Assembly: GCA_034687125.1 (NCBI GenBank)
Contig: JAQGBZ010000095.1
Coordinates: 124,001 to 188,000, forward strand
Origin: Neelides folsomi
Taxonomy: Eukaryota > Arthropoda > Collembola > Neelipleona > Neelidae
Length of the DNA: 64,000 nucleotides
Direction: 5' to 3'
A program made the translations under genes and the position numbers. Shown here in pieces: positions 13,778 to 52,886 of this stretch; the first letter of the stretch is position 1, and each line of letters starts with the position of its first letter. The notes under the pieces are model-generated. The model was not told where the DNA came from. It searched no databases and saw only the letters and a program-made list of their open reading frames with translations.

Positions 13778-14009
13778 TATAATAGAATGACCATATTTAT
13801 GGGCCCTGTAGTCTCATTTAAATAACTTTTTTATTTATCAACCAATCGACATGAAATTTGGACCTAATATGTACAAGCGTATGTAGTATAAGGCAAAAAA
13901 TGTTAGATGTCAAAAGTCACCCCGTGACCTTTGGTGCATTGTTAAATTATAAATAAAAAAGTTATTTAAATGAGACTACATGGCCCATAAATATGGTCAT
14001 CCTATTATA
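13778..14009. mobile_element. MITE with about 61-bp terminal inverted repeats
   Basis: Left arm 13,778-13,838 and right arm 13,949-14,009 are reverse complements with only about two mismatches. Both outer ends read TATAATAG, followed by (A/G)ATGACCATATTTATGGGCC on the inward-reading strand. The roughly 110-base centre has no coding capacity. A short non-coding element with long perfect-looking inverted repeats is the hallmark of a non-autonomous DNA transposon. The outermost TA on each side could be a TA target duplication as in Tc1/mariner relatives, but the boundary is not certain. Near-identity of the arms suggests a fairly recent insertion. Confidence 0.85.
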
Positions 14010-33000: not shown

Positions 33001-35968
33001 TGATTATAAAAATGTGATTTTAATTGCTTTTAGAGCTCCAATTGACGAGGGAACTGCCAAAGTCCCAGTAATTGAACATAACATGAGCAACTGCGACGGT
33101 CTAGCCATTGACTGGCTCTACTCTCACGTTTATTGGACGGACTCTGGAAGAAAAACGATCTCGGTGGCCGAGTTGGATGGGAAGATGCGGAAGACGTTAA
33201 TTAGTGAAAACCTGGTCGAGCCTCGATCAATCGCTGTAAATCCCACTGACGGGTGGATGTATTGGACGGATTGGGGCTCAACACCAGGGCGAATCGAAAG
33301 GGCCGGAATGGACGGAACTCGAAGGGAAGTGATTGTAAAAACCGGTCTCAAATGGCCCAACGGTCTTACGCTCGATCTCGTCCATGGGAAAATCTACTGG
33401 GTGGATGCAAAATTGAGTTCAATTTCTGTAGCCAATTTTGATGGAACCGATCGACGGACAGTGTTGACCTCACCGTCTGCCCTTTCTCATCCTTTTTCCA
33501 TTACTACATTCGAAGATAACCTCTATTGGACGGATTGGAATGCTGAGACGATTTTTAAAGCTAACAAATTTACTGGAGAGGATTTGGCTCCTCTTTTGCC
33601 ATTAAAATCTGTCAAGTATGTCATGTCGGTCCATGTTTACCATGCGTACCGGCAACCAGATGGAGAAAATCATTGCATTCCACTCAATGGGAAATGTTCT
33701 CATCTTTGCTTGCCCGCTCCAAGGATTTTGGAAGTTTCACCACCAGCAACGAAGCGAAGGAGATCAACCACACCGAATCCCGAGTCTCTTATTACTTGTG
33801 CATGTCCGGATGGTCTGCTCTTGGCTAAAGACCGCCAGAATTGTGCCATCGATCCGAGTAAGTATAACTTTTTTATGAACTTAAACTTCTCAAGACAATC
33901 ATAATTAATTTTGGTAGGGACCTGTTTTATAGAAACAATATTTTGATAGTCTTAATTGAATACCTTGAGGATTAAGTGAGAATATGGGAGATGTGTTGGA
34001 ATGTTATTTTATAATATGGAAAGGAAATTGTTCATGATTTAGAAACTTCTAAATTGATTATAACATTTTCACCTTGAACTTTCCCCAAAGTTGGAGTTTG
34101 GAAACCTTTTTAATTATTTTTCTTTGTAGTTTCCTCTTTCAATTAATTATCATCAAGGGTTTCTCTTATAATTAGAATTTGAACTTGTAAGAGGATTATT
34201 TAATAATTACAAAGAAGGTTTGTTTTACTTTTACCTCATAGGGCTAAATGTTACTTTATTATTTATTTAACTATAACTTTATTGTTGGGGAATAATTTCA
34301 ATACTTAATATTTATTATTGAAAGTAGATTTGATTGGTTATTCAAGGGAGTTAAATATTTACCTACGTACAATTGTAATGTATACCTAAGTATATTATAT
34401 TTGTAAACTGTACTTTAGCTATCTTACTATATTTAAAGAGTAAAATTTAGTTAATTGGTGTATTATCACCGGGTTGGAGCATGTTGGGACGAATGTTTGC
34501 ATGTTTGCATATGCTCTTTTAAGATCACACGAAGAACGCCCACACCCACCAACACCGAAAGGGACATCTGAAACATGCAACCGAAGAGGAAAATGAACTC
34601 GATTCTCGCCCCAGAGATCACATCCATAGAAAGAACTCCACTGATTTCAGACCGAAGAATCGCGGACGAATGAATTTCCCGGAAATGTCCGCTGAATTGC
34701 AGAATGAAATCCCGAGAATTTCACCGGCTGACTCAGGTTTCCGCTTTTAACTAAAACCTTTCCTCTCTTAACTTGGGTCTTTTATCTTAACGAGCAATTA
34801 ACTTAAACTTAAATTGTGTGGGGAATTAACGATAAAATATTATACCTATCTGTATTTGTATTTGGGAAGTGTCTTTGGGAAATAATACATGGTGCATCAT
34901 GAACATTAAAAACTAATTATTTAATATAATAATAATTATAATAAATATATTAATTAATTTGTATTGTAAATAATGGATATAATTTAAGTGAAAGATGGAA
35001 AATTATATATAATTTAATTTAATAGGTATTAATGGTCCGGAGAGTGCAGAGGATTATTCACAAGGTTCAATATCAAACACGACTGAAGGCACGATGTTCG
35101 GCCTCCTCATTTCACTTCTCGTCGCTGGTTCAATTCTCATAATTTTGGTATGAAAAACTATGAGCTCTGACTTTGAGACATTTCTAATCCAACTCGAGTC
35201 AATTGAAGTAATAAATGATGATGTGAAATGAATAATTGACAGATTGGTCTTCTGCTCTACCGTTACTTTGGAGGGAAGTCTGGAGATAGTATGAATTTTG
35301 ACAATCCCGTCTATCGTAAGACGACGACGGAAGGCGGAGATCCGCATATTTCTTTAATGAAGCAAAATGGAGTTGGGAATGGGCGAGCGGGGCAGAACCA
35401 CAGGCATCAGAATGGATATCATCAAAATCATAAGAATTACCCTCCAGCCACCATTTCTGAAGAGGTAACATGATTTTTTAATAAATAGTTTGTTCACTTG
35501 TAAATATTCTAACACTTCCGAATACTTCTCTATCACTTTGCACTAATCACAAAATTACTAATTATCCTTCAATGCAGCATTTTGGATATTTTGAGCCGGT
35601 GGTAAGTTCATCTCACTTCGCACAGTCACCCTTTCCTTTACTTTATAAGACAGTCAAGGAATTATTAAAATTTTAAATGGACTTGAATCTTTGAATAAAT
35701 ATTAATTACTGACATTGTTATAAATTATATTAAATAACAATGTCAGTTATAATTAATTATAACTTATAATTTTAATATAATATAATATTTCTCCTTAGTT
35801 TAATGAACTTTAAATGAGATCTGTAATTAAAAAATAATTCAAATTGTATTAAAAACATCCTATTTTCTACTTTTACTTTCAATCCTATTTATGTAATTTG
35901 AATTTAAAAGCGAATTTTTCTTTCAGGTGACGGTTCCTTTAACCGAGAACGTGAACGAATACGTTTAA
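18026..35968 (+). CDS. LpR: Lipophorin receptor (LDLR/VLDLR family), complete, 15 exons, 1015 aa
   Basis: An endocytic receptor for lipophorin-type lipoproteins at the plasma membrane. Exons: 18026-18161, 23956-24081, 25560-25685, 28111-28236, 30014-30243, 30396-30490, 30560-30738, 30813-31094, 31216-31516, 33034-33857, 34524-34736, 35026-35147, 35243-35464, 35578-35601, 35927-35968. All phases match. Order: signal peptide (from [18 protein letters not shown]); eight class A repeats (about residues 50-393, each with C-D/N-x-x-x-D-C and SDE-like calcium motifs); EGF-A (398-432); EGF-B (438-473, calcium-binding DIDEC); a six-bladed YWTD propeller (about 476-740); EGF-C (748-804); a polar stalk encoded by one exon (809-879); one membrane helix (about 903-925); and a cytoplasmic tail with the NPxY endocytosis signal FDNPVY (939-944). 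Eight LA repeats match VLDLR/insect LpR rather than LDLR (seven). LA1-LA3 are each on a 126-nt phase 1-1 exon. The EGF-C insertion and the 24-nt exon 14 are unusual. Confidence 0.95.
18162..23955 (+). other. LpR intron 1 (5.8 kb)
   Basis: Joins the signal-peptide exon to LA1, phase 1 on both sides. I see no further LA-like exon or nested gene. An alternative first exon could hide here or upstream but is not recognisable. Confidence 0.8.
35701..35760. repeat. Long hairpin in the last LpR intron
   Basis: CTGACATTGTTAT and its reverse complement ATAACAATGTCAG face each other across a loop of about 12 A/T bases, with further partial pairing outward (ATTAATTA and TAATTAAT). It lies between the 24-nt exon 14 and the terminal exon. 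It may be a small foldback element or a structured intron RNA; nothing shows which. Confidence 0.7.
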
Positions 35969-38900
35969 AAGAAAAGCTTTTTCTCATTTTCAATCAAATG
36001 GAGACGAATCATAAAAGAGTCATTTTTACTAATATTTATTCATTACTTGAAGAATCTCGCCCGCTCTTCGCAAGAGTCACAACAATGAAGAAATCCAACT
36101 CATGAATGTCGTGGATCCATGAGAAATTCCACATTTGTAATATAACTATAAATATATTATGGTATAATTAAGCAATGTATTTAAATCAAAAATGCAGTAA
36201 TTATTGTTACGTTTAATAAGTTGCAAATATTTTTTCAACCTCCTAAAAGTTTTTAAAACTTTAAACAGAAAATGATAATGTATAGTATTAGACAAAGAGT
36301 TACCATTTGGTCAATACTAATATCATTAAAGATTTAGTGTATTAACTTATAATTCATGATGATTGTAATATCAATTTTTTTTATTCGAAACCCTTAAAGG
36401 TTTTAGACTTTGGCAAAAATTGTTAATTATTGTTATATTGATTCCTATTATTTTTGTCGTAAGTTGTTAATTATTATTTATAAAGGTTAAAAGTAAACTA
36501 TAACATAATGCATTTTAAAGATAATGTATTCTTCATTCATATCATTATTACTATTTGTGATCAGTTAACTATTAATGTAATCTTATTATAATTTACTTTT
36601 GTTATCACGTTTAAATTCTAATTACAAGAGGTAACGAATGTTTGTGTTCAACGTATTTCAATTTGTTGAATAATCTCGTACTAATTTTAAGACATCTCGC
36701 GCATCCATTACAATGTTGATAAAAGTGACTGCCATAAAGTTTTTGGCTCTCTCGATCACTTCAAATTAAAAAAGAGATTATTTAATTTAAATAAGTGGCG
36801 ATTGTTATTCTGATCTGCTCTTACAAATTGTATAAGGAGAACATTTGAGAATTTACATAAGAATATATTTAATTGATCAGTTTATCCTATTTTTGTTACC
36901 TAATTATGAGAAAAATATTTGTTTGGATTAGAATTTAAGGTTAAAAAAACTAAATTAAGGCTATTTAAATATTTAAGCTAAATGATATGAAACGTGTTAT
37001 GTTTTTACTATTTCTTATTATCTCGTTTCACACCTAGGTCTGCTCAAATAATCATCAAATAATACATAATAATGAAAAGAGGATGATTGCTGTTCTTGTG
37101 CGTACGATACGGCTTTCAATATTTAGAGTAATAATCTTTAAGGTTAACTTTTCTTTAATCGAAATACTTTATAATTTATACCTACTTTACTTAAATAATA
37201 ATTCTGTTGCTTTTCTGCGGGGAAAAAATATTTTCTAGTTTGATTTTGATCTGATGCCATCCATCAATTATGTCAAAACCTTAAACCTTATTACCTGAAT
37301 AAGAGATGGACATTTAATTTTTTGATATTTATTTCTTAGTTCTTGAATCTTGCTTTAATTGTTTAATTACTAAATGTTAATCTAAAAGTATGGAATGCCA
37401 TTTTTCAAGTTTCTTCCTCCATTGAGAGATTGGTCAAACGGTGAAAGATGAATGTGTGATTTTAATTATAATTCTATCTTATAAAATAATGTAAAGAAAT
37501 TAATGTACTTAATGATTGTTACAATATATTTTACTCACACATGTGTGCAGTTAGCGTAAACTGATTTCACTTTGAATAAACTCATCGGTTATCTCTAAAT
37601 TGTAAGGTCAATAAATATAAACTTAGGAATTTCTACATCAGATATTATCTCTGTTAAGAAAAATGTAAAAAATCTCAACTGTGTATACTATAATATGCAT
37701 ATAATTAATAATAAGGGAGAGGGAAGAAATTATTGCAAATATATAAATACTTTAGATTTAGTTGGGTTTTCCAAAATTACAAAAAATTATGAATGTAATG
37801 AAGTAAAACAAGAATAATCCATCGTCATTCCATTTCATTAGAATATTAGATTTTAAATCATGTTTAATTAACTAGATAAAAAGTTTAATGTTTACACATT
37901 GCCATGTCAGATTCTTTATGATACTTGTAGAGAAATTGGTATATGAATTTTAGAATGCTGTGCATTTTGAAGGATTTTTTTTCTTTTCTGAAACTCAACA
38001 AGTTGGTTTGTGAAATTATGTTTAATAGAGGTATGTAAATTTGTAATGTTTATTCCATGTAATCAAAAAAATATCATTTACTATTTGTATAAATGTAATA
38101 ATTGAATGATTAATGATTGCACATGCAATTTATAAGGATAAGTAAATCTCATTATGTTGAGAGAATGCAAAACAAATACATTGTCATGAAATAATTATAA
38201 AATGTGTTAAAACGGGTAGGCGAGTTTAAATAGTGGAATACAACATAATTGTAATTGTTATATAGGATGAAGTACCTAATAAAATAAGTAAAAAAAATAA
38301 TAATGAAATAAATATTTCGTAAAAGAGGAGAACCACGGTTTTAATTCTTCGAATTTTTGACAAGTTGATGATGTCTCAAAAAATGTTTAAACATTTAACG
38401 TAGTGAATTATTGTTAAGATTATGGACATAACTCATTTAATTCGTTTTTGATTATTATTTTTTGATTATTCATTGTGGTACAAAAGGTACCGATATGGTT
38501 GTTTGTGCATTAGAATTCCCAAATATTTTCTACTTATTTATTACCATATGTTATTTAAAATAATGATAATGAATTATTGTGACCTAAATAGTTGATTTTG
38601 TGCCAATTAAATATTTAAAACAAAAAAGCATCACAAGATTACTTATTGAAAGAATTATCATATTTCACATATTTTTTTAATAAATGGCTCGGCTGGCTGA
38701 ATATTAAAGATTTATTAAAATTAAATGGTCCTAAATCCATTTATTATTCGAGCATGCATTCAGCATTCCTCAATAATAAACCTTGTTTATTGCATGAATT
38801 AACATTAAATTTTATATAATTTGTATTTATTATTTTATTCGTTTACAAGCTCTTGCATTAATTTTCAGATGATTTTTTACATGTTTGAATACATTACATA

Positions 38901-39050
38901 GTGAACAAAGAAAGAACGGTGATGGAAGTAAATGGATAATGGTAAATGGATAATGGTAAATGGATAAATTGGGTAATACGAGACATTGATCATAGTGCGC
39001 CATCTTCATACAAAGGTGTACATTGCACTTGCGGCAAGACGTGAATTTCC
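35969..39050. other. LpR 3' UTR and A+T-rich intergenic DNA
   Basis: About 3 kb of very A+T-rich sequence with no exon. No canonical AATAAA is close to the LpR stop; ATTAAA occurs near 36,325 and an AATAAA near 37,610, so the LpR transcript end is unresolved. Confidence 0.5.
38929..38966. repeat. Short tandem repeat, about 2.7 copies of a 14-mer
   Basis: The unit TAAATGGATAATGG is repeated nearly perfectly, about 150 bases upstream of the RpL37 start codon. Confidence 0.85.
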
Positions 39051-39055
39051 TTGCG

Positions 39056-39062
39056 CATCTTT
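39056..39062 (+). promoter_or_regulatory. Possible TCT/TOP-type initiator of RpL37
   Basis: A C followed by a T run (CATCTTTTAT) lies about 58 bases before the ATG, the expected place and type for the polypyrimidine initiator of animal ribosomal protein genes. Tentative; no transcript end is visible. Confidence 0.25.
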
Positions 39063-39115
39063 TATATCATCCGGCGTGATTCTCCTCGTTTTCATTCACC
39101 TCCCCGGAGAGCAAA

Positions 39116-39807
39116 ATGGTAATTTTAACTTTAATTGAGAATTAAAAGGTGTAAATTCGGGTTTTAACGTGTTCATATTGTTTTACAGACGAAGGGAACG
39201 TCGAGTTTCGGAAAGAGGCGTAATAAGACCCACACTTTGTGCAGACGCTGCGGCCGGTCTTCCTATCACATCCAGAAGTCACGATGTGCCCAATGTGGAT
39301 ACCCGGCTAAGAAACTCAGAAGCTGTAAGTTAATTGCACAGCAATTAAAGATTAATTGGCTTATATATTTATATGTATTTCAATAATTCTTTTTGAATAT
39401 ACCGTAATGATTTATCTTATTTTTAATTTGGGAATATTTAAGGAATAAAGAAACATTTTAATTTAATTTAATTTACAAGCCTTGAATTAAAATTTTATAA
39501 TTTTTTATTTAAGATAACTGGTCTGAGAAAGCCCAGAGGAGGAAGACCACTGGAACCGGAAGGATGCGTTACCTTAAACTTGTGCGAAGGCGCTTCAAGT
39601 AAGCCAAATTATCTTTTATTATTTTCATATTTGTTCTAATGAAATTATTACGATGATAACATGATGAGTATTATTAGTTCAACCATTCGTTATTAATGAA
39701 CTTGATTTTACAAACTGATATATTAATTTGTATAATTTTATTATAGGCACGGATTCACCGAGCCCAAGTTGGGACACAAATCAGCCAAGGGAGTGAAGAG
39801 CTCGTAA
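39116..39807 (+). CDS. RpL37: 60S ribosomal protein L37 (eL37), complete, 4 exons, 94 aa
   Basis: Structural protein of the large ribosomal subunit. Exons: 39116-39118, 39189-39324, 39514-39598, 39747-39807. The first coding exon is only the ATG, spliced immediately to ACG-AAG-GGA ([19 protein letters not shown]), the invariant eL37 N-terminus. A zinc-binding C2-C2 motif is intact: two CxxC pairs in [10 protein letters not shown] and [10 protein letters not shown]. The basic middle ([18 protein letters not shown]) is also diagnostic. The length fits the family (about 90-97 aa). The sequence between the CxxC pairs ([10 protein letters not shown]) matches insect RpL37 better than vertebrate. 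The ATG-only exon is typical of this gene in animals. Confidence 0.97.
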
Positions 39808-39858
39808 ACATTCGACTTTTAACTTCTGTGTGTTGGGAAAAAGTGAAGGTATCGTTGA

Positions 39859-39864
39859 AATAAA
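39859..39864 (+). terminator. Polyadenylation signal of RpL37
   Basis: AATAAA 52 bases past the stop codon, giving a short 3' UTR as expected for a ribosomal protein mRNA. Confidence 0.8.
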
Positions 39865-39869
39865 ATTCT

Positions 39870-42800
39870 TTTTCCAGATTACCTCTTTATCCGTCAAATT
39901 ATTTTCATACAAAACACTTATTTAAAAACCATATTTTGGTGTTTTTATTTGTCGTTTTTTTTTAATTTGAATCATTTTATTATATTTTGTTTACGGGCTC
40001 CAATACATTGATCCTTCATTTTATACAACTCAATATCAATTCTTTTTCTCATTTGCAAATTAAAGATGCATATAGAATTGTAAATAAAGTCACTAAAACA
40101 TAGGTAAATGGAAAGACCAATATATAAATTATTAATTGTCATTTCTTTTGGTGAATTATTGGGTAGGTTAGAAATGTACGGGATTTTCTTTAATTTCTCG
40201 GTCTGAGTCAAAGAGTAATTATACTTGTCGAGGCCAAGTGTTTCATTTGTCGTGAGGAGGAAGCGGATGGTTTGTGTAATTAAACCATTTGGAAAAGGGT
40301 CGTCATTGCCCTTCGGCTCATCCAAATAATGAACGTGGGCCTAATTGTTGAAACGAGAGTTGGACGAGGTTGAGAGGAGTGAAAAAGAAGATGATGGTAA
40401 GGATAGAAAACATCCGTATCATCCTTTTATTATTATTTGTGTTGATTCGGCGGAAGATTCTCATGACTCAACGCCCTACAATGGGTGAGGGGAAATTCAG
40501 CGGACCGAAGCGACTCCGCTCCACCTCACACATAACAACTCTTCTTCTTCTCTTCATATACCGATAAATCCCCTGAGTAAATGCTTCACATGCATCATAT
40601 ACATATTATTTAATATTGCTTCATATATCCTCCCTAGTATCCAGCTAGTATAAGTACTTAGCCATTCGAAGTTTTAATCATAAGCCAATTTTTTGTTGCA
40701 CCTTGTCGGTATTCATTATAATTTTGAAATGTCATACTCGTATATATATATATATTTACATTTAGAGTTATACATATAATAATTAGGGAGAATGGGAGAA
40801 ATGCCTTTAATTTATCATGGTATCATGCAAATCAGCTTACCTGTATTGTTAAATCACATTTCATAGATGCTTTTATTTGCTTTTGATTCACGAATACTTC
40901 CGTTTGAGTTCCGCTGTCTCGTTTTGAATTTACGCATAATGTATAATATAAAAAAGTTAGTGGTATATAAAATTTATGCAATCGTATAACAAAATGGATC
41001 ACGTTTTTAACATTTTATATTTATTAAATTTTCATTTTGGAGTTTTCTGACCTTTTGCATTGATGGAATATGTAGAAGCTTAGGTATACTAATTGTAAGT
41101 ATACAGAAGATAGTTAAGGTTTGAGAGGATTTCTTAGGGGAAGTTCGACGTCAATGTTAAAGTAGTTAAAGTTGAAAGAGGGAGAGTTTGGGGAATTTTG
41201 TTGGAGAGTATTTTAGGGGGTTGGGGTGTTTAATTGTGAGTATTTCGACTAGGGCTTTTGCCTCCCTCGTTTCAACTTCCTCTCTGTGTGGAAGTCATTG
41301 GCTTCCCAGCCACCTGTCAACTAACTCTCTCATACAAGTCATCTTCTCCGACCCAAGGAATATCTCAACAGATTCAATTGGATAAAATATACAATTTCAG
41401 TTCTACTTAATTTACATAAGCAGATTCAAGTTATTTTACCTTCGATTAGTTTTAATACTTTAATATATTAAACAGTTTTATAAGCACGAACAACGTGGTT
41501 TATTTCAAATAAGTTTTTCGTGTTACCCTTGAATAAACGTTCATTTCGTTATCTCGTATATCACTTTGATAAATAATAAATAATTATTATAGCAAGTTGT
41601 ATGTTTAGTCAAAATATTTATTTTAATGGTTATTGACATTAAATTGGGTTTCGACATTTGTGAATGTGTTTGTACAAAATATAATTGTTCAATCCACAAC
41701 TGTGAATTATTGGTGTCGAGTTGGAGGGGCAAACGAATTGATTAAAAGTATCCAAGTGTTGAAGTGGAGTAAAAGAGGTATACAATTATCCTAAATATTT
41801 AGATTCCAAATCGTTAAATTGCCCACAACAGTTGGTTTGAAAATAATAAATACTTCGTTTGTTCCGTTAAAATAAGTATTAAGCCGCGGCGTCCTCCTTT
41901 TAAGTTCATTTTGGGAAAGCCAACTTTCGCAAATAAATCATCAATTCATCATATTTAACATTCTTCATCAAACCCTTTGTTGTAAATTTCTTCGTGATCA
42001 ACTTTTTATTTTGTTTTTTTGAATGTCACTGTCACATTTAAGAAAATCGAAACTTGTCATCTAAAAGAAGAGGAAACCCCAAGACGCTCGACGCAATGGA
42101 ACGTTCGCGTTTCTAAAAATAAAGGAATAAGAAATTAAAAGGAGTAATTAAGCAAAATACAAATAGTTTAAAATAACATTATACTAATGACGATGATAGT
42201 CTTAAAATTTTTAATCTCTCATATGTAGGCTTATGGTTAGTTGAATAGTGATATCAGTGATATGTGACGAAGTGAAAATGAGAAAAAGACCTTGTTTCCG
42301 CAATAATGATTCCAATGATATACGAAATAATATATTTTAATCATTGTGACTTCATGCGGATTACTTCTAAGGTCAAAGAATAATTTGAATTGAATTACAA
42401 GTGCGAAAAAGGAAGTTGTCTCAATATCAATACAGTGTCGAATGAACTCAAAACACATTATTGAATTAAGCAGTGTTGAAGCGAATAATTTAACTATACA
42501 TATTAACTGTGTATGGATTTAATATCAAAACATAAAGTCAATATTAACTAATATTAATTTTGAAAGCTAATATTTATAACCATTCTACATTATATAACTA
42601 AAAAGTAATTTATGAATTTATGACTATCATTTTAACATTATTGTGCTACAATGTATATTATAACACAAGTGCATGAGCAATTAAACATTTGATGAATTTT
42701 ATTTAGCAAGATAAGATATTGTGTGTAATGTCAGTTGGTTTTCAATTATCTTTTTTTACTCAATATCGATATAAGCTAGGCAGGCATTAACATTCCTCCT

Positions 42801-43040
42801 CCTCACAATCGGAATCAGACAAAGTGGAATAGGGAAGACCTTGGTTTCAATTTAATTGAACAATGAACGAGCGACAATACGTTACGAATTCGAGGTCCGC
42901 CAAATAATTATTCTTTTTCGTATTTATTTTACTCGTCTTTGAAGTTCCTTCTGACCCGTTTCCCTCACCGCAGTGAAAAAAGGCACAACGAAGCATTGAA
43001 CGACACTTAACTAGATAGCATTCAATTAACCAATATCCTG
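39870..43040. other. Intergenic DNA between RpL37 and GIPC
   Basis: About 3.2 kb without a supportable exon. It contains a short (TA)n run at 40,741-40,756. The largest frame (minus, about 39,972-40,325) has no recognisable domain. Confidence 0.55.
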
Positions 43041-43065
43041 CCGTTTAGTTGTGAATTGGGTGAAA

Positions 43066-45276
43066 ATGCCACTGTTTAAAAAGAGTGTTCCTCCAGTTCC
43101 CAACCCGCAACAGCACCAACAACAACCACCGCCACAACAACAACAACCTCCTCCCGTTGAACCACCTCCAGTCCCTTCGAGAAATTCTGTTCGAAATGGT
43201 CCAGAAGAGGAGAATCAGCAAAAGCAAAAGTTGGTCTTTCATTGCCAACAAGCTCAAGGATCCCCCACTGGGCTCATTTCGGGATTTTCAAACGTCAAAG
43301 AACTTTATTCCAAAATTGCACATTTTTATGATTTCCCTGTTGAAGATGTAAGTCATTGTTCTATTTTATTGTATTTTATTTTCTAGAGTTTTAAAATCAG
43401 TATCAAGACATTTACCTAAATGTCTAAATTACTATATATTACTTAATGTTAGTACATTATGTATTTTCAACCTTTAATAATTATTTTTTATCAGATCCTT
43501 TTCTGTACATTGAACACACATCGTGTCGAAATGGAAAATTTATTGAGTGCTCAATTATGCCTCGACGACTTCATCTTTGCTCACCGAAAAGGAACTAAGA
43601 AGGAAGTCGAGGTGACAAAAACTGAAGACGCCCTTGGTCTTACCATAACGGACAATGGGACGGGCTATGCGTTCATTAAGAGGATCAAAGACGGATCGAT
43701 CATTGACAGAGTGAAAGCCATCCAAGTAGGAGATCATATTGAACGGATTGACGACGAGATCTTGGTCGGTTGGCGCCACGTCGATGTGGCAAAATTCCTC
43801 AAGTCAATTCCAGTAGGCCGGACGTTTACGTTGCGGCTCATTGAACCACTCCGAGCAGGGTTTGCAAATATTGGGCCAAAGTCAGACGGACGAAGAGTCG
43901 GGAAAGGAAAAGGCTACGGGAGTGGGAAGGAAACTCTGAGGTTTAGAGCCAATGGACCTGCACGAATTGAAGACGCTGTAATTAACAAACATTTTTTTAT
44001 TCTCATTTTTTACATCATAATCCTCCTGAAGCTTTTGGATAGACGATAGACCATAATGAGTTAATTTAAGTTAATTATGAGCTATAAGGGTAATTAGGGT
44101 TATGGTAAGTGTTTTAAAGCAAAAAAGGAATTCTCGAGTTTTGAGTAATAATTAAAAATGATTAGGGAGATTTGGGGAGTTTCGCTTTCGTTTTCCTTTT
44201 CTCGCTCCAATTGTCCTCACTTTTCCTTTGTTCTTCAATTGCATCACTGAGGAACGTAATAAAAAGGATACACTTCCGCACACAGACACACTCACACTTA
44301 CAATATTTTTACCAAAATACTATTACAACTGGTTTAATAATGTTGTATCTCTGACCATTTTAATCGTTAGTGAGATCGTTTCCACTGTCTTAGAAAGATT
44401 GTTGTTAAAATAATATCAAGTTGTGGTTCTACACATAATAGACGGGATTTGGAGAATAATGTTGGGAACTTGCTTATAAGCTATAATGGTTTACTTAATG
44501 ATTGTGCCTCATTTTCATACACATTTTTTCACTTACTTACAATAGCCACTTATGAAAGCTAATGTTTAATGTTAATAATTGTTATCTTAAAAATTGCAGC
44601 CAGACGACTCAACGAAAGTAGCTGTTGAGAAGATCAACAGACTCCTTGAAAACTTCATGGGAATTAACGACAATGATTTGGGTAACTTTTTTAAAATCAT
44701 AGCGCTTATCTTTCATACCACATAATAATGTAGTTCTAACGAGTTAATGGGTACAATTAAAAGAAACGGTTTTTTTCTCAATTAAACAATAATAATATCT
44801 TTACTATTATGTATAAAATGGATCTAAACATTTAGTAAAATAAGTTCGTTTATTATCTGCGAACAAAGAAACGGTTCTACCATATATATTTTTCGGTTTA
44901 GACTTTAGACTACTACATGTTTTAGCTCTTGAATTCCTGTAGTGTTTAAATGCTATAAGCTAATTTGAATTAATAATTTTTATAATCAGACAATATAATG
45001 ATACAATAACATTGTATTTCAGCCACTCAGATATGGGAAATGAGCAGTGGGAAAAGCAATACAATGGACTTTGCAGAAGCAGTTGACAGCTCTGAACTCG
45101 AGTCTTTCGGTTTCACAGATGATTTCCTCATTGAAGTTTGGGGAATTGTGACGGATGCAAGAGCTGGGAGACTCACTGCCAAGAAACCCGATCCAACGGC
45201 CGGGTTCGACGAAGACGAAATTTCCCATCTCATTCCTTCAAAGCCTGGAGGAAGAAGAGCCAATCGTGTAAAGTAG
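43066..45276 (+). CDS. GIPC: GIPC PDZ-domain trafficking adaptor, complete, 4 exons, 366 aa
   Basis: A cytoplasmic adaptor that links membrane-receptor tails to myosin VI during endocytosis. Exons: 43066-43347, 43495-43977, 44600-44681, 45023-45276. The start is the ATG giving MPLFKKSVPP; the frame also reads a few codons upstream from a GTG, which I ignore. Order: a Gln/Pro-rich N-terminus (about residues 15-40, where vertebrate GIPC1 is also Pro/Gly-rich); GH1 (LVFHCQQAQGSPTGLISGF, ILFCTLNTHRVEM, LEDFIFAH-like); a PDZ domain (about 133-213) with the ALGLTITDNG carboxylate-binding loop and GYAFIKRI; and the C-terminal GH2 domain (about 257-345, VEKINRLLENFMGINDNDL and FTDDFLIEVWG), which binds myosin VI. 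Unlike vertebrate GIPCs, which end soon after GH2, this one has about 25 extra residues ending GGRRANRVK. Confidence 0.95.
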
Positions 45277-45285
45277 AAGGTTGTA

Positions 45286-45291
45286 AATAAA
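45286..45291 (+). terminator. Candidate polyadenylation signal of GIPC
   Basis: AATAAATAAATAA begins ten bases after the stop codon. It would give a very short 3' UTR; a later site is possible. Confidence 0.5.
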
Positions 45292-45299
45292 TAAATAAC

Positions 45300-46740
45300 T
45301 TATATAAATATTGTTAATATGCCGAGCATTTATTTACATTTATTTTAATGTTAAATGTCGTATGTAGCATATTAGTTTTCTCAGGACACGGTTTATTGAA
45401 TATGGTGTGTGTAAATGATACGCATAATACAGATTGTACTATTTTGACATTTTCAAACTTTTTTCATTTTTGTAATAATGTGATAATGGGGTGAATTGCC
45501 TGCATAGGGAAGAGACATTAGTGCAATTTTCAAATGAGGATAATGAGAGTCACGTTGTCACGTTGTTTTACTACAGAAAGAGAATCTTCATTGCTAAGAT
45601 GCGTCCATAAACTTGATGCTTAACGGAGGTAGAAATGGCTGCTGCTGAGATTTCAACGATTCGTCATGGGAGAAGATCTTTCATGTAAAGAGTTCGAATT
45701 ACATTACAGGATCCTTTAATGCGAACTTTTAGAATTTCCACAATCATTATACCTCTCTCAATGTCTCTCTTTGCATTTATCATCTTGTATTTCCTTTAAA
45801 GTTTCTCATCATTCATCCTCAACTGAATTAACAGCTTAGGAAAGAGAATATGCATTCATCTCTAACTAAAATTTAACTATTGCTATTCCTATTTCATTTC
45901 TTCAATTCTAATGCGTGTACACGAAAATAAAGAAGTCCGTAACTTCATAAGTACATATATATGTGCAGGTATAATCAATTCAAAGGGAAACGATATAACA
46001 TTTTCGAAATTTGCAAACATAACTTATTAACGTATAATTAACTTTGTATCTGAATATACCATGATCCATAGGAGTTAATGTTATCTTAATTTCTATTGGA
46101 ATTTGGTTAAAATTAAAGAGTTAAAATTGCGAATACGAGAAAGGCGAGAATGCGAAAAAAAGGTCCATCTCACTTCTCTCAAATTTTTTACGATCAATCA
46201 TCAATCATTGATCAAACGAGAAAAACTCACCCAGCTCACATTAGAGTTTAAGAGTAATAGTGAATTCAAGATTTGAGCCAGTATGGTCTTATAAAATGAT
46301 TAAGTGTTGATAAACCTTTGGTCTCAAGTTGGTCTCATATTGGCCGAACTGAACTGAACTTGTGAAATTGAAAACGAAAGGAGAAAAGGCAAACTTGATA
46401 TAAAAGCTATTTATTATAATCTTTATTTAATCATGATCGAATATCTTACTGTCGAGGGTGAATTAAGGGCAAGTGTCGGAAGTCGGACGTAGTCGTAGTC
46501 GGAGAAAGTTCGCATGTTGGTTGTTCATTTTGAGGGTGGAGAGGAAGTAGTGTAATGCCCCGGTTGGAATTTGGAAATCATCATTGTCGCTATTTATCGA
46601 CAGAGAACAATCGCCATGCGCCGTCTTCACGCTATTCCTCATCCAAGATCGAAACTCCCCTCCACTTTTTTAACTTAATTCCCACTTTTTTTTTTATTAA
46701 ATTTGACATCTCTCTCCTCTTCAGCTCTTCTTCATCTTCT
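45300..46740. other. Intergenic DNA between GIPC and HTATSF1
   Basis: About 1.4 kb with no exon or RNA gene recognised. The final 250 bases become less A+T-rich and pyrimidine-rich and probably include the HTATSF1 promoter and 5' UTR. Confidence 0.5.
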
Positions 46741-46776
46741 TCCCCTCTTCCTTACCTTTAACCCTGTGTCCTCAAC

Positions 46777-49700
46777 ATGTCTGAAAAGAGTGACAAAGAA
46801 AAGGGCGAAATTGGAAACCCGCTTTACTGCTCTTACGTCGAGGGACTCTACACTTATAAAGTAAATACTTTAACTTCCATTGTCTTTATTTGTTTAAATG
46901 TTGTTTACAAGAATTGTATGCAATCCGACATATAATTTCTAAATTGATTCGGTGTATTGATTTTTATAATTTTTTTGTTTAGGATCCAACGAGTCTTAAT
47001 GAGTTTGTGTGGGATGAGGACAATAAATTATGGAAGCCTAAAAAAGTCGCAGGGCAAATAGTCCAATTTGACGGGTATTTAGAATTTAGAAACTCCATCA
47101 AAGTTAACTTTGATAATTTATAAAATAATTATAAGATTTTAACTTTGATGTTCATAAATTTATTATTATTTTTTGATAAAGTTAAAATATATTGATTGGT
47201 GTTAAATGATTTTTGTATAATGTTTCAGAGAATCTTATACTTACCACGACAGCGATGGGACTTGTTTTCAATGGGATCCATCAAAGTCTGCTTGGTTCCC
47301 TAAAGTGAGCTCAATTTCAATTTACAAAATGCTTTAATGCTTCAAACCCATTTGAGTTGCGTGCTTAAGTGTTGAAACGGTTAAACCTCATTTATGGCTC
47401 AAGTTCTCTCTTTTTTTAATTTTCAAAACATTTCATTATCTACTTACACTACCGTTGTGAGAAATGCCCTGTTTAAAAACAGAATTCAATTCTTCGCCGG
47501 AAGTAAATTATTTTTCCAGGATTCTCGAGAAGGCTTCCGAAATCCCAATTACGAGCGACAAGAGGAAGGTCAGCCAAGGCGATTTTACTACGCTGCCCTT
47601 TCTCCTTCTGAAATGGGCGTGAACGAGCCGGTGCTCTTCCTTTCCCCTGATGACCAAGCAAACAATAACTCAACTTTAGAAGAAAAACCTAGTGAGTTGC
47701 CATCCGGTTGGGAGCGACACGACGATGCGAACGGCCCTTACTATTGGCATATCAAGTCAGGAACGATCCAACGAGAACCACCAACACCCGGAGCGACTTC
47801 TCCACCACCAGCAAATCCCGCACTTCTCATTCCAGGATCTCTTGAGAATCCGACACCATTCAGACGGTCCCAAACTTCCTCGCAGCTCAGCAGTAAAGAA
47901 ACACGAGAGAAACGAAGGTTAATTTCCTAATTAATATTTCTAATCTTGTACCACTACTATACTATTAATGACAATTAATCAAGCGGTTTGGTAAATTAAA
48001 CAGAAATATTTTATTTTAGATCGTGGTCACAATTTTTAGAGGGTCCACCAGTGGACAAAGATTCACTTCATTTTGTAGGAGTTTCACTTGGATTTCTTGG
48101 AATCTCTGAAGAAGATTTGACTCCTGAGAGATCTTCAAGAGCAGTTTCAAAAATCATAGCTGAACTTTCTTCCCAGCATTTGTTTCCTAATTCGTAAGCT
48201 TCTTTAATTTCTTTTTTAATCGAGAAGATTTAAACAAGTGGAGAATTAAAATTGGGTTATATTATTATTAGACTTGAAGTTGCTGGAAAGATTTGGGGTG
48301 GAGGTTCCGAATTGTACATTGAACTCAACGAATCTCATTTGAAGATTGTGACTAAAGAAGGTCTCACTGTCACGGAACAACCAATTCATTCCATTAGGGT
48401 TTGGGGTGTTGGACGAGATGATCCAAGAGACTTTGCTTATGTTGCGAGAGAAAAGCAAACTCGACAGTTTCTTTGTCATGTCTTTAGGTTATTTCATTCA
48501 ACTATTTTTAATATCAGTTCTTTTTAAATGCTTTACTTTTTCTTCAAAAATATTAATTATGGTTTTTATAAATCGCTTTATAAATATAGGCTCGAGTTGA
48601 ATGCTCGTCCTTTGGCAAGTGCTCTTCGAGACGCTTGTAAGAAAATCATGATTGAGCGACAAGCGAAACAAAAGCGACCAACAACTCTTCCATGTGAACT
48701 TCGTAAAGCTCCTCAAACTTCTCCATCTTTCTTTCCCACGCCGATGGACGAACCGAGGAAAGTTCTTCATGCTTGCTATTTGGGATCCAAGATCGTAAAT
48801 AAGCCGACAGGAATGGAAACCCTTAACGCAGCCATTGACTTTTTACGAGCTCAGGAACCAATTCCGTAATAATCATTTTAAATATTTAAGGCAGTTTAAT
48901 ATTGATGAGGTTAAGCCCAATGAGGTCAAGGAATAAATTCACAAATTTTAATACATTGTAATAACATGATTAATGTCTCAATTTCTGTAATTTAGTGTAA
49001 GTGTGTCAGTTGCTCCTTCGGTTGTAACAGTTATTGGAGAAGAGACTAAAAAGGTAAAGAGTAAAAAACCAATGCCATTTTATTAGTAAAGAAACAATTT
49101 TAATTTAATTTAAAGGTTAATGTCGAAATCCGAGTTCGATATTTATCCTTTATGGGAATAGGACGTGACGTTCAGACATGCGGAGTTATTGTGAGATAAA
49201 TTTTAATTAATATTATTCAATGATAAATAACACAGTTAAGATCGTTTAAATTGTTTAATATGAATTGGTAATTAAATATTTATCTAAAGGTTCATACAGC
49301 AAGAGACGAGTTTGAAGCTCATTGTTTCTACTCAACTCCAAGTTCTGGAGCTCTTTGCAAAGCAATCGAAGCCGCATGTGTTCTTCGATGGTCAGTACAT
49401 TTTTATAGTTCTTTAGATTACTAAACCAATCTTATTTAAATAAATTTATTTTCAGATTATTTAATAATTTAATTATAATTCCAGGCAAAAGTGCTTAGAT
49501 TCACATGGATCTGGCGGAGCGGCACCTCCTGCCCTTCCAGCCACCACACCGAAAACTGCAGCCAATCTCGCTGCAACATTCAAAAGCGTCCTCGCCTCTT
49601 TCAGTCGGTCGAAGAGCGAGGAAACAAAGAACTGAGAAACTCTCAACTAGTCATAAATCTCATTCTTGTACATTTTAGTGCCAAAAAGAGAGAGAACTTG

Positions 49701-50909
49701 AGCCATTCCACTATTACCATTTACATTTACCTAAAATTCCTTTTTACGAATGCCAATGCACATCAACAAACGCGCTTGTTATTTTGCCATATTATATTAT
49801 TATTTTTTGCTACAAAGCTGGACGAAGAGTTCATGGCGAAGTACCAGCTGTCCTATGGGGGATCCTACGACCCGCCACCACCAAAAGAAGAACCAGATAA
49901 AAAAGATGAAGATGAGCCACAAGGGAAGAAAGCTAAAGGAGTCGCCCATCTACCTTCATGGTTTGAAGAAGAAGCTGCCAAGTCCACAAAGGTCTATGTG
50001 TCAAATCTCCCGAAGGACATCACGGATACTGAGTTTGTGGATTTTATGCAAAAATGCGGACTTGTCATGAAGGATCCGAACGGTGAATACAAAATTAAGC
50101 TCTACACTGACTCCGAAGGGAATAGGAAAGGCGACGGGCTTTGCTCTTATATTAAGGTTTTCAATTTAAACGATTTATAAAATTATAAAATTTTTCTAAT
50201 GAAATTATTATATTGACAATAATAACGATTAAATTAATCTACATTTAACGTTTTACTTAACTTGTTTTTACTTTGTTAAGGTCGAGTCGGTTGATCTCGC
50301 TTTAAATATTCTTGATGGAGGAGATTTAAGAGGAAACACTGTAAGTGTCGAAAGAGCAAAGTTTACTCTTAAAGGCGATTACGACGCCACGAAGAAGCCC
50401 AAAGCGAAGAAACGCAAAGATAAAGAGAAGTTGAAAAAAGCTCAAGAACGTCTCTTTGCATGGAAACCTGAAGCTCTTCGGGGAGTCGCAGCGAGACCAA
50501 AACACGAAAAGGTTGTCGTTGTTCAAAACGCATTTTCCCCAAGTGATTTCAACGAAGACGTTCAGCTCATTCTCGAATACCAAGATGACTTTCGAGAAGA
50601 GGCGAATAAAGTTGGGCAATGCAAAAGAGTAGTTTGCTTCGATGTAAGGATTTAATTTAAACCACCACTTTTGTAACATTGTTGAATTTATAGAGACATC
50701 CTGAGGGGATTCTTCAAATATTTATGACGACAGCAGAAGAAGCCGATGCTGTTGTGAATTTATATAATAATCGATTCTTTGGGGGTCGGAAGATTTCAGC
50801 TTATCTCTGGGATGGCCATACGAAGTATAAAATCGAAGAGACAGATGCGGAGAGAGAGGAAAGGATTCAAGGATGGGACAAATTCGTCGCTGGCGAAGAA
50901 AAGAAATAA
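46777..50909 (+). CDS. HTATSF1: HTATSF1 / Tat-SF1 (barricade) splicing-elongation factor, complete, 6 exons, 389 aa
   Basis: A nuclear RNA-binding protein of the CUS2/Tat-SF1 family that associates with the U2 snRNP (SF3B1) and elongation machinery. Exons: 46777-46860, 46983-47074, 47229-47304, 49818-50156, 50281-50643, 50694-50909. Two aromatic N-terminal repeats (YTYKDP..WD...LWKPK and ESYTYHDSDG..WDPSKSAWFPK) match the Tat-SF1 N-terminus. Exon 4 continues it exactly (LDEEFMAKYQLSYGG). RRM1 is at about residues 142-226 (KVYVSNLPKDIT, GDGLCSYIK); a linker contains LFAWKPEALRG; RRM2/UHM is at about 274-362 (KVVVVQNAFSPSDF, NRFFGGRKISAYLWDG). The protein stops 25 residues later and lacks the long acidic tail of vertebrate Tat-SF1. 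Intron 3 (47305-49817) contains an Fe65 gene on the same strand. Confidence 0.93.
47394..49635 (+). CDS. Fe65: Fe65-family adaptor (APBB), 8 exons, 524 aa from the first in-frame ATG; inside HTATSF1 intron 3
   Basis: The family is a cytoplasmic/nuclear adaptor that binds the NPxY tail of amyloid precursor proteins and LRP-type receptors. Exons: 47394(or 47520)-47917, 48020-48193, 48272-48487, 48590-48865, 48996-49053, 49116-49190, 49290-49390, 49485-49635; phases match throughout. Numbered from 47394: WW domain (about 102-130: LPSGWERHDD, GPYYWHIKSGTIQREPP); PTB1 (about 187-325: SIRVWGVGRDDPRDFAYVAR, CHVFR); PTB2 (about 368-490: VLHACYLGSKIVNKPTG, VRYLSFMGIGRDVQTCGVI, CVLRWQKCLD). The signature VWGVGRD..RDFAYVAR is diagnostic of Fe65. 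The start is uncertain. An ATG at 47394 opens the frame, but a good acceptor (TATTTTTCCAG) at 47519 suggests that the upstream 42 codons may be intron and that the first exon lies elsewhere, possibly HTATSF1 exons 1-3, which end in the same phase. The last WW tryptophan position is Arg. Confidence 0.9.
49652..49657 (+). terminator. Weak candidate polyadenylation signal for Fe65
   Basis: CATAAA 17 bases after the Fe65 stop is the only plausible hexamer in the 182 bases before HTATSF1 exon 4. No AATAAA or ATTAAA is present there. Confidence 0.3.
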
Positions 50910-50994
50910 ACAAATACTTCATTTTTTTTACTCAATGCTTAATTATTATGTTATTACCGATTGTTATCTTATATTATGATTATTTTACAGTTGA

Positions 50995-51000
50995 AATAAA
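50995..51000 (+). terminator. Polyadenylation signal of HTATSF1
   Basis: AATAAA 86 bases after the stop codon, followed by T-rich/TG-rich sequence. Confidence 0.8.
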
Positions 51001-51369
51001 ATTCAATTTTTGTTGATTGTGATTTTAAATGAAGCAATTGATCATTATTTAATTCATCAGCTTATAGCTTGAATTTATGAGCCTGAGTGTGGGCATCTGC
51101 ATTTAAGTTGACTGTTCATTAAAAATAAAGATTTTTTTAAACGTTAGCCAATTAATAAAATAATTAAACTACAGACACAGCACAGTTAGTAAAAGGAAAA
51201 GCAAATCATGCTGTTTCATATTGCATTGCAAAGTTGCAATGTGTTTAGATATAGACTTTGAATAGATTCACAGCCCGACACCTTGTGGATAAATCTCCTG
51301 AAGATTTAGAAGCATGCTGCTCCGCTTCCTCCATTGACTCAATCGGCACGGACTCGACGACGATCCGTT

Positions 51370-51376
51370 CACCTTT
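51370..51376 (+). promoter_or_regulatory. Possible TCT/TOP-type initiator of RpL5
   Basis: CACCTTTAATC lies about 40 bases before the ATG, a position and composition that fit ribosomal protein gene initiators. Tentative. Confidence 0.25.
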
Positions 51377-51414
51377 AATCTTCTAATTAATCGGGAAAAA
51401 CCTAACCGGGCATC

Positions 51415-52886
51415 ATGGTAAGGCCTGATTTACCTTCCCCCATTAATCCATAATCCATTACGAGTGGAAATTAAATTACATGGGGTCAAAGTTTCCACCA
51501 GGACCCGACCCTTCTAATCCAACATTTGAACCTTATAGTTTTCTCATATTTTCACATAGTGGATATAAATTCACTTTTCATTTCTCATTTTCTTGTTATT
51601 TTTCAATTTGCTAAATCTTTGCAACCATTAAATGTGGATATATTATGGATTAATAGTATTAATTATTAACTTTTAATTTCATATTTATATATTTGGTGAT
51701 TTTAATCATGCGAATTTAGAGGATTTTTGGTATTTTTTTATTTTATATTTCAATATTTTATATTTTAGGGATTCGTGAAGGTAGTTAAGAACAAGGCGTA
51801 CTTCAAGAGGTTCCAGGTTAAGTTCAAGAGGCGTCGTGAGGGCCGTACCGATTACTATGCTCGTAAACGGCTCATTGTCCAAGACAAGAACAAGTACAAT
51901 ACGCCGAAATACAGGATGATTGTCAGGTTCACCAACAAGGACATCATTTGCCAAATCGCCTATGCCAGACTTGAAGGAGATATTGTCGTATGTGCAGCAT
52001 ACGCTCATGAACTCCCTCGGTATGGTGTTAAAGTTGGTTTGACAAATTATGCGGCCGCATACTGCACCGGACTCCTTCTTGCCAGAAGGGTATGTAAAAT
52101 AATATGTAAAATATGAAATTTAAATCAATACAATACAATAGAACATTTTGCACTCTTTTTGACATTTTGATTGTTTTTACAGCTATTGAAAAAGCTTGGA
52201 CTTGACTCTATATACGAAGGTCAAAAGGATGTTAATGGTGAATACTACTGCGTTGAATGTGCCGATGGACAACCAAAGGCCTTCAAGGCCGTCCTTGACG
52301 TTGGACTCTACCGCACCACCACTGGAGCCAGAATCTTCGGAGCCCTCAAGGGAGCCGTTGATGGTGGCCTCGACATTCCTCACTCCGAGAAGAGATTCCC
52401 AGGGTGGGACAATGAAGCGAAGGAGTTGAAGGCCGATATCCACCGCAAACACATCTTTGGCCAACACGTCGCCGCCTACATGAGGAACCTCTTGGACGAA
52501 GATGAAGGAGCCTTCAAACGTCAATTCTCTAGATTCATCAAGGAAGGAATTGGCGCTGAAGGGGTATGTTATTTTAGTCTTAATTATTATTCTTTAAAAT
52601 TTTGCACTTATTCTTTTAATTCGCACGTTCCTTATACTTTACTTTGCTTTTTATTCTTTATATCTTTTTGTTTTTTGTTTCTTAATTTATATAACTTTTG
52701 TAGCTCGAGGGTATTTACAAGAAGGCCCACACCTCCATCCGTGCCGACCCAAGTCCTGGTAAGAAGAAGGAGAAGACGAAGCCCAAGAAACGCTGGACCC
52801 TCAAGAGACTCACCGGAAAGGTGAAGAGACATCACGTGGCCCAGAGAAAGGCTGCGTTCCTCAAGAAAATCGCCGACAAGGCTTAA
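51415..52886 (+). CDS. RpL5: 60S ribosomal protein L5 (uL18), complete, 4 exons, 295 aa
   Basis: Binds 5S rRNA and RpL11 and joins the central protuberance of the 60S subunit. Exons: 51415-51417 (ATG only), 51769-52089, 52183-52563, 52704-52886. The conserved N-terminus [15 protein letters not shown] is formed across the first splice. Family blocks are intact: [59 protein letters not shown] and [17 protein letters not shown]. The C-terminus is lysine-rich and the length matches the usual 295-300. Like RpL37 in this window, the first coding exon holds just the initiator codon. An ATTAAA at 52,903-52,908 may serve for polyadenylation. Confidence 0.97.

What the first reader, a model, noticed from the sequence alone, without database searches (positions are those of the whole stretch)
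46777..50909. Fe65 gene nested in an HTATSF1 intron, same strand, with phases that allow an in-frame fusion
All exons of an Fe65 (APBB) adaptor lie within HTATSF1 intron 3 (47,305-49,817). HTATSF1 exon 3 ends in phase 0 at 47,304. Both the first good Fe65 acceptor (47,520) and the true HTATSF1 exon 4 acceptor (49,818) are phase 0. One promoter could therefore yield two proteins by alternative splicing: Tat-SF1, or the Tat-SF1 aromatic N-terminus (84 residues) joined to WW-PTB-PTB. Only about 90 bases separate HTATSF1 exon 3 from the first Fe65-frame ATG (47,394), little room for a separate promoter. I know of no such pairing of these two families.
Basis: partly seen in the sequence, partly recalled or inferred. 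Interest (0 to 1): 0.78.

Follow-up and report, generated by a model that had tools for sequence, protein, structure and literature searches.

The report
Fe65 gene looped inside Tat-SF1 intron
A gene for one protein (Fe65) sits inside an intron of an unrelated gene (Tat-SF1), and two matching stretches on either side of it could fold the RNA so that the inner gene is looped out, which would be a simple physical way to keep two nested messages apart.

Summary
The nesting is real. A 389-residue Tat-SF1 (HTATSF1) gene at 46,777-50,909 has a 2,513-base intron 3 that holds eight recognised exons of an Fe65 (APBB) gene on the same strand (47,520-49,635). Human Tat-SF1 aligns straight across the 47,304/49,818 junction. 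The ATG at 47,394 is probably not Fe65's start: its stretch has non-coding composition, though a frame test is less clear. The acceptor at 47,520 scores high, so an upstream exon is likely; the only upstream candidates with a clear coding score belong to the host's own exons, but a non-coding or tiny first exon stays possible.

New here: the two intron flanks carry a 24-base inverted repeat (47,394-47,417 and 49,683-49,706) that pairs 24 of 24 in the sense RNA (-36.5 kcal/mol). Shuffled flanks never reach its score (0 of 1000), and it is best of 210 non-coding segment pairs. It would loop out the recognised Fe65 gene and bring host donor and acceptor together. I propose that RNA folding separates the two messages. 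No transcript or comparative data were available; promoter sharing and fusion remain open.

The parts
46777..47304 (+). HTATSF1 exons 1-3 (46777-46860, 46983-47074, 47229-47304), 84 codons, ending in phase 0
47305..49817 (+). HTATSF1 intron 3, 2513 nt, holding the Fe65 gene
47518..47521 (+). high-scoring acceptor in front of the first recognised Fe65 exon
   Evidence: score 9.0, not in the training set; 29 of 3514 AGs score as high
47520..49635 (+). Fe65 (APBB) gene: eight recognised exons, WW-like domain, PTB1, PTB2, stop
47613..47615 (+). first ATG after 47520, in frame, context GAAATGG; candidate Fe65 start if the upstream exon is non-coding
49652..49657 (+). CATAAA, the only one of ten poly(A)-signal-like hexamers tried that occurs in 49636-49830; no AATAAA or ATTAAA there
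49683..49706 (+). right arm of the 24-nt inverted repeat, 47 nt after the Fe65 stop and 111 nt before the host exon 4
49818..50909 (+). HTATSF1 exons 4-6: rest of the protein with RRM and C-terminal second RRM-like region; low-scoring acceptor at 49818
50995..51000 (+). AATAAA, the first of several possible HTATSF1 poly(A) signals

Best explanation
Fe65 is a same-strand gene nested in intron 3 of the Tat-SF1 homologue. The intron on either side of it carries two 24-nt complementary arms. In the host pre-mRNA the arms pair, loop out the recognised Fe65 gene (2,265 nt between the arms) and shrink the working distance between host donor and host acceptor to about 200-250 nt, near the usual intron size here. 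This helps a low-scoring distal acceptor (49818) win over the Fe65 acceptor (47520). Fe65 mRNA is made from RNA in which 47520 is spliced to an upstream exon. That exon is either a host exon, used before the right arm has been transcribed, or a separate short or non-coding exon not yet identified. Shown: nesting, collinearity, the arms, matrix scores of the acceptors, predicted pairing. Inferred: that the arms pair in the cell, that pairing changes splicing, and the source of the Fe65 5' exon.
For: Arms: 24 nt, 23 of 24 Watson-Crick, the one exception a G-U pair in the sense RNA, so 24 of 24 pairs at -36.5 kcal/mol; the antisense strand has a mismatch and -32.7. Score 43 against a mean of 18.1 and a maximum of 33 in 1000 dinucleotide shuffles of the two flanks; whole-flank duplex energy -56.5 against a lowest of -50.1 in 500. 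Top of 210 pairs of 21 non-coding segments around these genes, next 33. Second of all window pairs 200-5000 nt apart by the same score; 1 of 150 locally shuffled windows reaches it. All 24 pairs are in the minimum-energy fold of 47205-49917, probabilities 0.78-1.0. Geometry: host donor 89 nt from the left arm, host exon 4 111 nt from the right arm. Host acceptor lowest of 18 in leave-one-out, Fe65 acceptor high. Precedent: a structure in Drosophila Nmnat loops out a terminal exon with its poly(A) signal and brings the distal acceptor near the donor (PMC10790352, passages).
Against: No relative was found, so conservation or compensatory change cannot be shown. An inverted repeat can arise by chance or by a small inversion and have no function; part of each arm is low-complexity (CTCTCTTTTTTT), and the longest exact match alone, 18 nt, is not extreme for a 64-kb window (shuffles: mean longest 15.0, maximum 19 in 60). 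A stronger close-range repeat lies at 5800-6196 (score 67) and a 61-nt hairpin at 13778-14009. The contrast of acceptor strengths rests on a matrix of 18 sites: with itself in training 49818 scores 6.4 and only 3.3% of AGs match it, its pyrimidine content is higher than that of 47520 (0.68 against 0.53), and neither has a YTNAY branch-like site in the last 60 nt. Exon loop-outs are depleted among conserved human pairings (PMC8052449, passages). In a fold lacking the right arm, the left arm pairs with other sequence, so the switch would need refolding. The arms were seen in a general repeat scan, not predicted beforehand.
Confidence: 0.45

Rival explanations
1. Ordinary same-strand nested gene with its own promoter and a short or non-coding first exon, inside intron 3 or upstream of 46,777; Fe65 translation starts at 47613 or at an unseen tiny exon. 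The inverted repeat is incidental.
For: Nested genes are common in flies: about 10% of genes, two-thirds of nested genes on the strand opposite to the host (PMC4394429, passages), or about 6% by another paper (PMC3786989, start of abstract in the listing). The ATG at 47613 has a good context (what counts as good is recalled). The neighbouring RPL5 gene appears to have a first coding exon of just ATG (read by eye), so tiny first exons occur here. A modest local donor at 47457 (score 4.2) would give a 63-nt intron.
Against: 47520-47612 looks coding by composition (1.8% of 2275 open non-coding windows score as high), although frame-specific tests do not discriminate (27.6%; 20.8% of 759). No local first exon with a clear coding score was found. 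Core-promoter motif matches in 47305-47612 are few (one Inr-like, two TCT-like) and uninformative.
Confidence: 0.33
2. One reading: one promoter, with host exon 3 (or exon 1) spliced in frame to Fe65 at 47520, giving a chimera with the Tat-SF1 N-terminus (84 or 28 residues) joined to WW-PTB-PTB.
For: Among phase-0, ATG-started segments ending at a donor in 45300-47519, those with a clear coding score belong to the host's exons (exon 1: 17.0 bits; exons 1-3: 34.9). High-scoring near acceptor, low-scoring far acceptor. The spliced frame is open for 566 residues.
Against: Phase match is expected about half the time. A one-codon first exon would escape the search, and donors scoring under 1.5 were not looked at. 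No RNA evidence. The chimera would lose the RNA-binding parts of Tat-SF1.
Confidence: 0.17
3. The 24-nt repeats are terminal inverted repeats of a mobile element that carried Fe65 into the intron.
For: Inverted repeats bracket the gene.
Against: No exact target-site duplication of 2-12 nt flanks the arms. Besides the two arms, only 2 matches to the 15-nt core with up to 3 mismatches occur in the window, about the number expected by chance. Fe65 keeps seven introns, so it is no retrocopy.
Confidence: 0.05

Closest known systems
Cholinergic gene locus (VAChT inside ChAT)
   Same: Two different proteins from one locus by alternative splicing; in ticks exon 1 is shared by both (PMC7524744, passages). 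That VAChT lies in a ChAT intron on the same strand is recalled.
   Different: There the products serve one pathway and tick VAChT has 2 exons, a shared one included. Here the proteins are unrelated, the inner gene has eight recognised exons, and promoter sharing is unproven.
CPNE1/RBM12 promoter-sharing pair
   Same: Different proteins reached from one promoter by alternative splicing, as may be the case here (PMC2568002, abstract)
   Different: That pair shares 5' exons but has totally different coding sequences; here the host's coding exons could be joined in frame.
Nmnat loop-out in Drosophila and conserved long-range pairings (PCCRs)
   Same: Complementary arms that exclude a terminal exon and draw donor and distal acceptor together; -36.5 kcal/mol by ViennaRNA would fall in the strongest PCCR class, -30 or below (that paper used its own program)
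   Different: Nmnat loops about 350 nt and one exon; here about 2.3 kb and eight exons. Conservation is untested here.

Membership tests
HTATSF1 (Tat-SF1) | Collinear N-terminal aromatic stretch, RRM and C-terminal second RRM-like region | tested here: met
   human chain aligned over residues 69-386, E 1.9e-85; RRM_1 39.5 bits against cut-off 20.7; residues 271-363 match the solved Tat-SF1 domain 6n3d, E 5.9e-23
HTATSF1 (Tat-SF1) | Long C-terminal tail as in the human protein | tested here: not met
   the reading frame stops 3 residues after the region that aligns to the 803-residue human chain; whether the tail defines the family is uncertain
Fe65 / APBB | Two PTB domains most similar to APBB PTB1 and PTB2 | tested here: met
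   E 1.2e-27 to APBB1 PTB1; 3.6e-24 to APBB1 PTB2; the 10 listed solved chains are all APBB proteins; PID 75 bits, 2 stretches
Fe65 / APBB | WW domain | tested here: inconclusive
   best matches are APBB WW domains, but Pfam score 20.8 is below the cut-off 26.9 and the second Trp is Arg
same-strand nested gene | Recognised exons all within one host intron, same strand | tested here: met
   a 5' Fe65 exon outside the intron is not excluded
shared-promoter gene pair | Common first exon in both mRNAs | not testable with these tools
   no transcript data
long-range RNA loop-out | Complementary intronic arms bracketing the skipped exons | tested here: met
long-range RNA loop-out | Conserved or compensated pairing | not testable with these tools
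   no relative found in six scans of viral and prokaryote collections
long-range RNA loop-out | Pairing changes splice choice | not testable with these tools
   needs a minigene

The most novel reading that the evidence does not exclude
A folding-timed switch: one promoter serves two unrelated proteins. While the polymerase is still inside Fe65, the host exon 3 donor can only use Fe65 acceptors and yields a Tat-SF1/Fe65 chimera. Once the right arm emerges, the 24-bp helix loops out the eight-exon gene and Tat-SF1 is made instead. Since Tat-SF1 is itself a splicing factor of the U2 step (recalled), it could feed back on its own low-scoring acceptor.
Probability: 0.15. Interest if true: 0.85.

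Novelty: new variant of a known kind. Interest (0 to 1): 0.55.

Why it matters
A same-strand gene inside an intron poses a clear problem: how does the splicing machinery skip eight good exons, and perhaps an early poly(A) site, when making the host mRNA? A single strong helix that brackets the inner gene is a concrete, testable answer. If it holds, nested genes elsewhere can be scanned for the same signature. If the chimera is made, it would also be a way to give an adaptor protein a new N-terminus.

Tried and rejected
Fe65 start at 47394: rejected as main model. Its 42 codons score -0.22 bits per codon, and 0 of 1560 coding windows score that low (-0.24). Points in its favour: its frame is open for 45 codons, longer than at the other acceptors listed except 49818, although 45 open codons occur at about 7% of non-coding positions and a local null gives 11% for that frame; and in the frame-specific tests it does as well as or better than 47520-47612 (8.6 against 4.1; 16.7% against 27.6% of open non-coding windows reach it).

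Mobile element: no exact target-site duplication, no other close copies in the window.

Retrocopy: rejected, Fe65 has seven introns.

Known structured RNA: none at Rfam's gathering scores in 45000-51500.

Relatives: four scans of viral contigs and two of genome contigs gave none. These collections are not animal genomes, so this says nothing about conservation. The organism was not identified.

In print: searches for Fe65 + nested gene + intron (0 papers), HTATSF1 + APBB1 (2, unrelated by title), Tat-SF1 + Fe65 (0), nested gene + RNA structure + base pairing + splicing + intron (2, unrelated by title), host gene + nested + looped out + RNA secondary structure + splicing (0). The library is open-access only.

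Errors of mine: exon ends were off by one and corrected; the GIPC model began one codon early; the 'HT exon3 frame' row was read in the wrong frame and is not used.
Full report
What was claimed.

The nesting holds. I rebuilt both genes by hand. HTATSF1 gives a clean 389-residue frame in six exons and Fe65 a clean 482-residue frame in eight exons, all 12 introns GT-AG. A search against solved structures returns human Tat-SF1 at 1.9e-85, aligned without a break over the point where the Fe65 gene sits: AWFPK|LDEEFMAKYQ here, AWFPKITEDFIATYQ in human. The Fe65 part matches human APBB1 PTB1, PTB2 and WW. The other 17 introns in the four gene models I used (HTATSF1, Fe65, GIPC, RPL5) are 50 to 622 nt long; intron 3 is 2,513 nt.

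The phase argument is weak. Of 24 pairs of the three upstream host donors with the eight Fe65 acceptors, 11 are in phase, and 11 of 18 introns are phase 0.

Where does Fe65 start? A weight matrix from 18 introns of these genes gives the acceptor at 47520 a score of 9.0, though it was not in the training set; 29 of 3514 AGs in the window score as high. In 45-nt windows G+C rises from 0.38 to 0.51 between starts 47507 and 47516. The 42 codons from the ATG at 47394 to 47519 score below every one of 1560 coding windows by composition. So 47520 is most likely a real 3' splice site, with an exon upstream. Against this, tests that ask only for frame are no worse for the 47394 stretch than for 47520-47612 (8.6 against 4.1; 16.7% against 27.6% of open non-coding windows do as well), and its frame is open for 45 codons. 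Looking back over 45300-47519 for ATG-started, phase-0 segments ending at a donor of score 1.5 or more, 12 donors qualify. Three have a positive coding sum from some ATG: host exon 1 at 46861 (17.0 bits), the read-through of exon 1 to 46882 (11.5), and a 5-codon piece inside host exon 3 in another frame ending at 47286 (1.7; its longer form is -2.9). Host exons 1-3 together give 34.9. Three cautions: segments of one or a few codons cannot be judged, and the neighbouring RPL5 gene appears to have just such a first exon (read by eye); donors under 1.5 were left out, and one of the 18 model donors scores 0.3 in leave-one-out; and the coding signal of 47520-47612 rests on composition. If the upstream exon is non-coding, the first ATG is 47613 with context GAAATGG.

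Which acceptor would the host donor choose? The host acceptor 49818 scores 0.3 when left out of training, the lowest of 18, while 47520 scores 9.0 and is 215 nt from the donor instead of 2,513. On that ground the host donor might be expected to take the Fe65 acceptor unless something prevents it. This is an inference from a small matrix: with itself in training 49818 scores 6.4 (3.3% of AGs reach it), its upstream pyrimidine content is 0.68 against 0.53 for 47520, and neither shows a YTNAY site in the last 60 nt.

The new element. A repeat scan showed an inverted repeat whose arms, 47394-47417 and 49683-49706, lie in the two small intron stretches on either side of Fe65. It is 24 nt, 23 of 24 Watson-Crick; the remaining pair is G-U in the sense RNA, so the sense helix is complete, -36.5 kcal/mol, while the antisense one has a mismatch, -32.7. 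Controls: 1000 dinucleotide shuffles of the two flanks, mean 18.1, maximum 33, observed 43; 1228 same-geometry pairs slid across the window, the best outside this locus 35; 210 pairs of non-coding segments around these genes, next best 33; whole window, pairs 200-5000 nt apart, second after a close pair at 5800-6196 that scores 67, and 1 of 150 shuffled windows reaches 43. Longest exact match alone (18 nt) is less striking: shuffled windows had a mean longest of 15.0 and a maximum of 19 in 60 runs. In the minimum-energy fold of 47205-49917 all 24 pairs form, with probabilities 0.78 to 1.0. A fold of 47205-49600, without the right arm, pairs the left arm elsewhere.

What it most likely does. 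With the arms paired, host donor and host exon 4 are 89 and 111 nt from the helix, an ordinary intron for this genome, and every recognised Fe65 splice site and any Fe65 poly(A) site before 49683 lies in the loop. The only one of ten poly(A)-signal-like hexamers tried that occurs in 49636-49830 is CATAAA at 49652, inside the loop; the host has AATAAA at 50995 and others after it. This is the logic described for Drosophila Nmnat, where a structure excludes a terminal exon and its poly(A) signal (PMC10790352, passages), and the authors of PMC8052449 offer as a hypothesis that such pairings, with splicing, suppress premature intronic polyadenylation (passages). The same paper reports that pairings which loop out exons are depleted. 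That the arms pair in the cell here, and that this changes splicing, is inference.

What remains open. No animal genome could be searched. Six scans of viral and prokaryote collections gave nothing, which is uninformative about conservation. Whether Fe65 has its own promoter, shares only a leader, or is made as a chimera cannot be settled from this sequence.

Place among known things. Nested genes are common enough: about 10% of fly genes, with two-thirds of nested genes on the strand opposite to the host (PMC4394429, passages); another paper gives about 6% (PMC3786989, start of abstract). A shared first exon is reported for ChAT/VAChT in ticks (PMC7524744, passages), and shared 5' exons for CPNE1/RBM12 (PMC2568002, abstract). 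Looping out by long-range pairing is known. Looping out a whole nested gene within its host I did not find in the searches listed under Tried and rejected. I therefore call it a new variant of a known kind.

Noticed in passing
33035-49635: Upstream lies an LDL-receptor-type gene (Ldl_recept_b); an open stretch at 35240-35470 that looks like its tail reads NFDNPVYRK (35303; the link to the receptor is by eye). Then come GIPC and Fe65. In mammals Fe65 and GIPC are adaptors for tails of this receptor family (recalled). A receptor and two possible adaptors within about 17 kb.
   Followed up: partly
47691-47789: The Fe65 WW-like domain has Arg where the second signature Trp stands in human (GTIQREPP against GTTQWEPP), and scores below Pfam's cut-off; proline-ligand binding may be altered.
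   Followed up: partly
50694-50909: HTATSF1 ends right after the second RRM-like region; the long C-terminal tail of the human protein (acidic, recalled) is missing.
   Followed up: no
49479-49817: The HTATSF1 exon 4 frame is open for 113 codons upstream of its acceptor, through the last Fe65 exon in another frame; 113 open codons occur at about 0.17% of non-coding positions, and a local null for 49485-49817 gives 0.7%. In principle the acceptor 49485 could give a longer host exon 4. Probably chance.
   Followed up: partly
34163-34187 and 36606-36630: Best same-geometry inverted repeat of the window outside this locus, 25 nt, 88% complementary, around the receptor gene's 3' part.
   Followed up: no
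5800-6196 and 13778-14009: Two close inverted repeats of 61 nt, 82% and 97% complementary; they may be MITE-like.
   Followed up: no
51415-51769: RPL5 appears to have a first coding exon that is only the ATG (read by eye).
   Followed up: no
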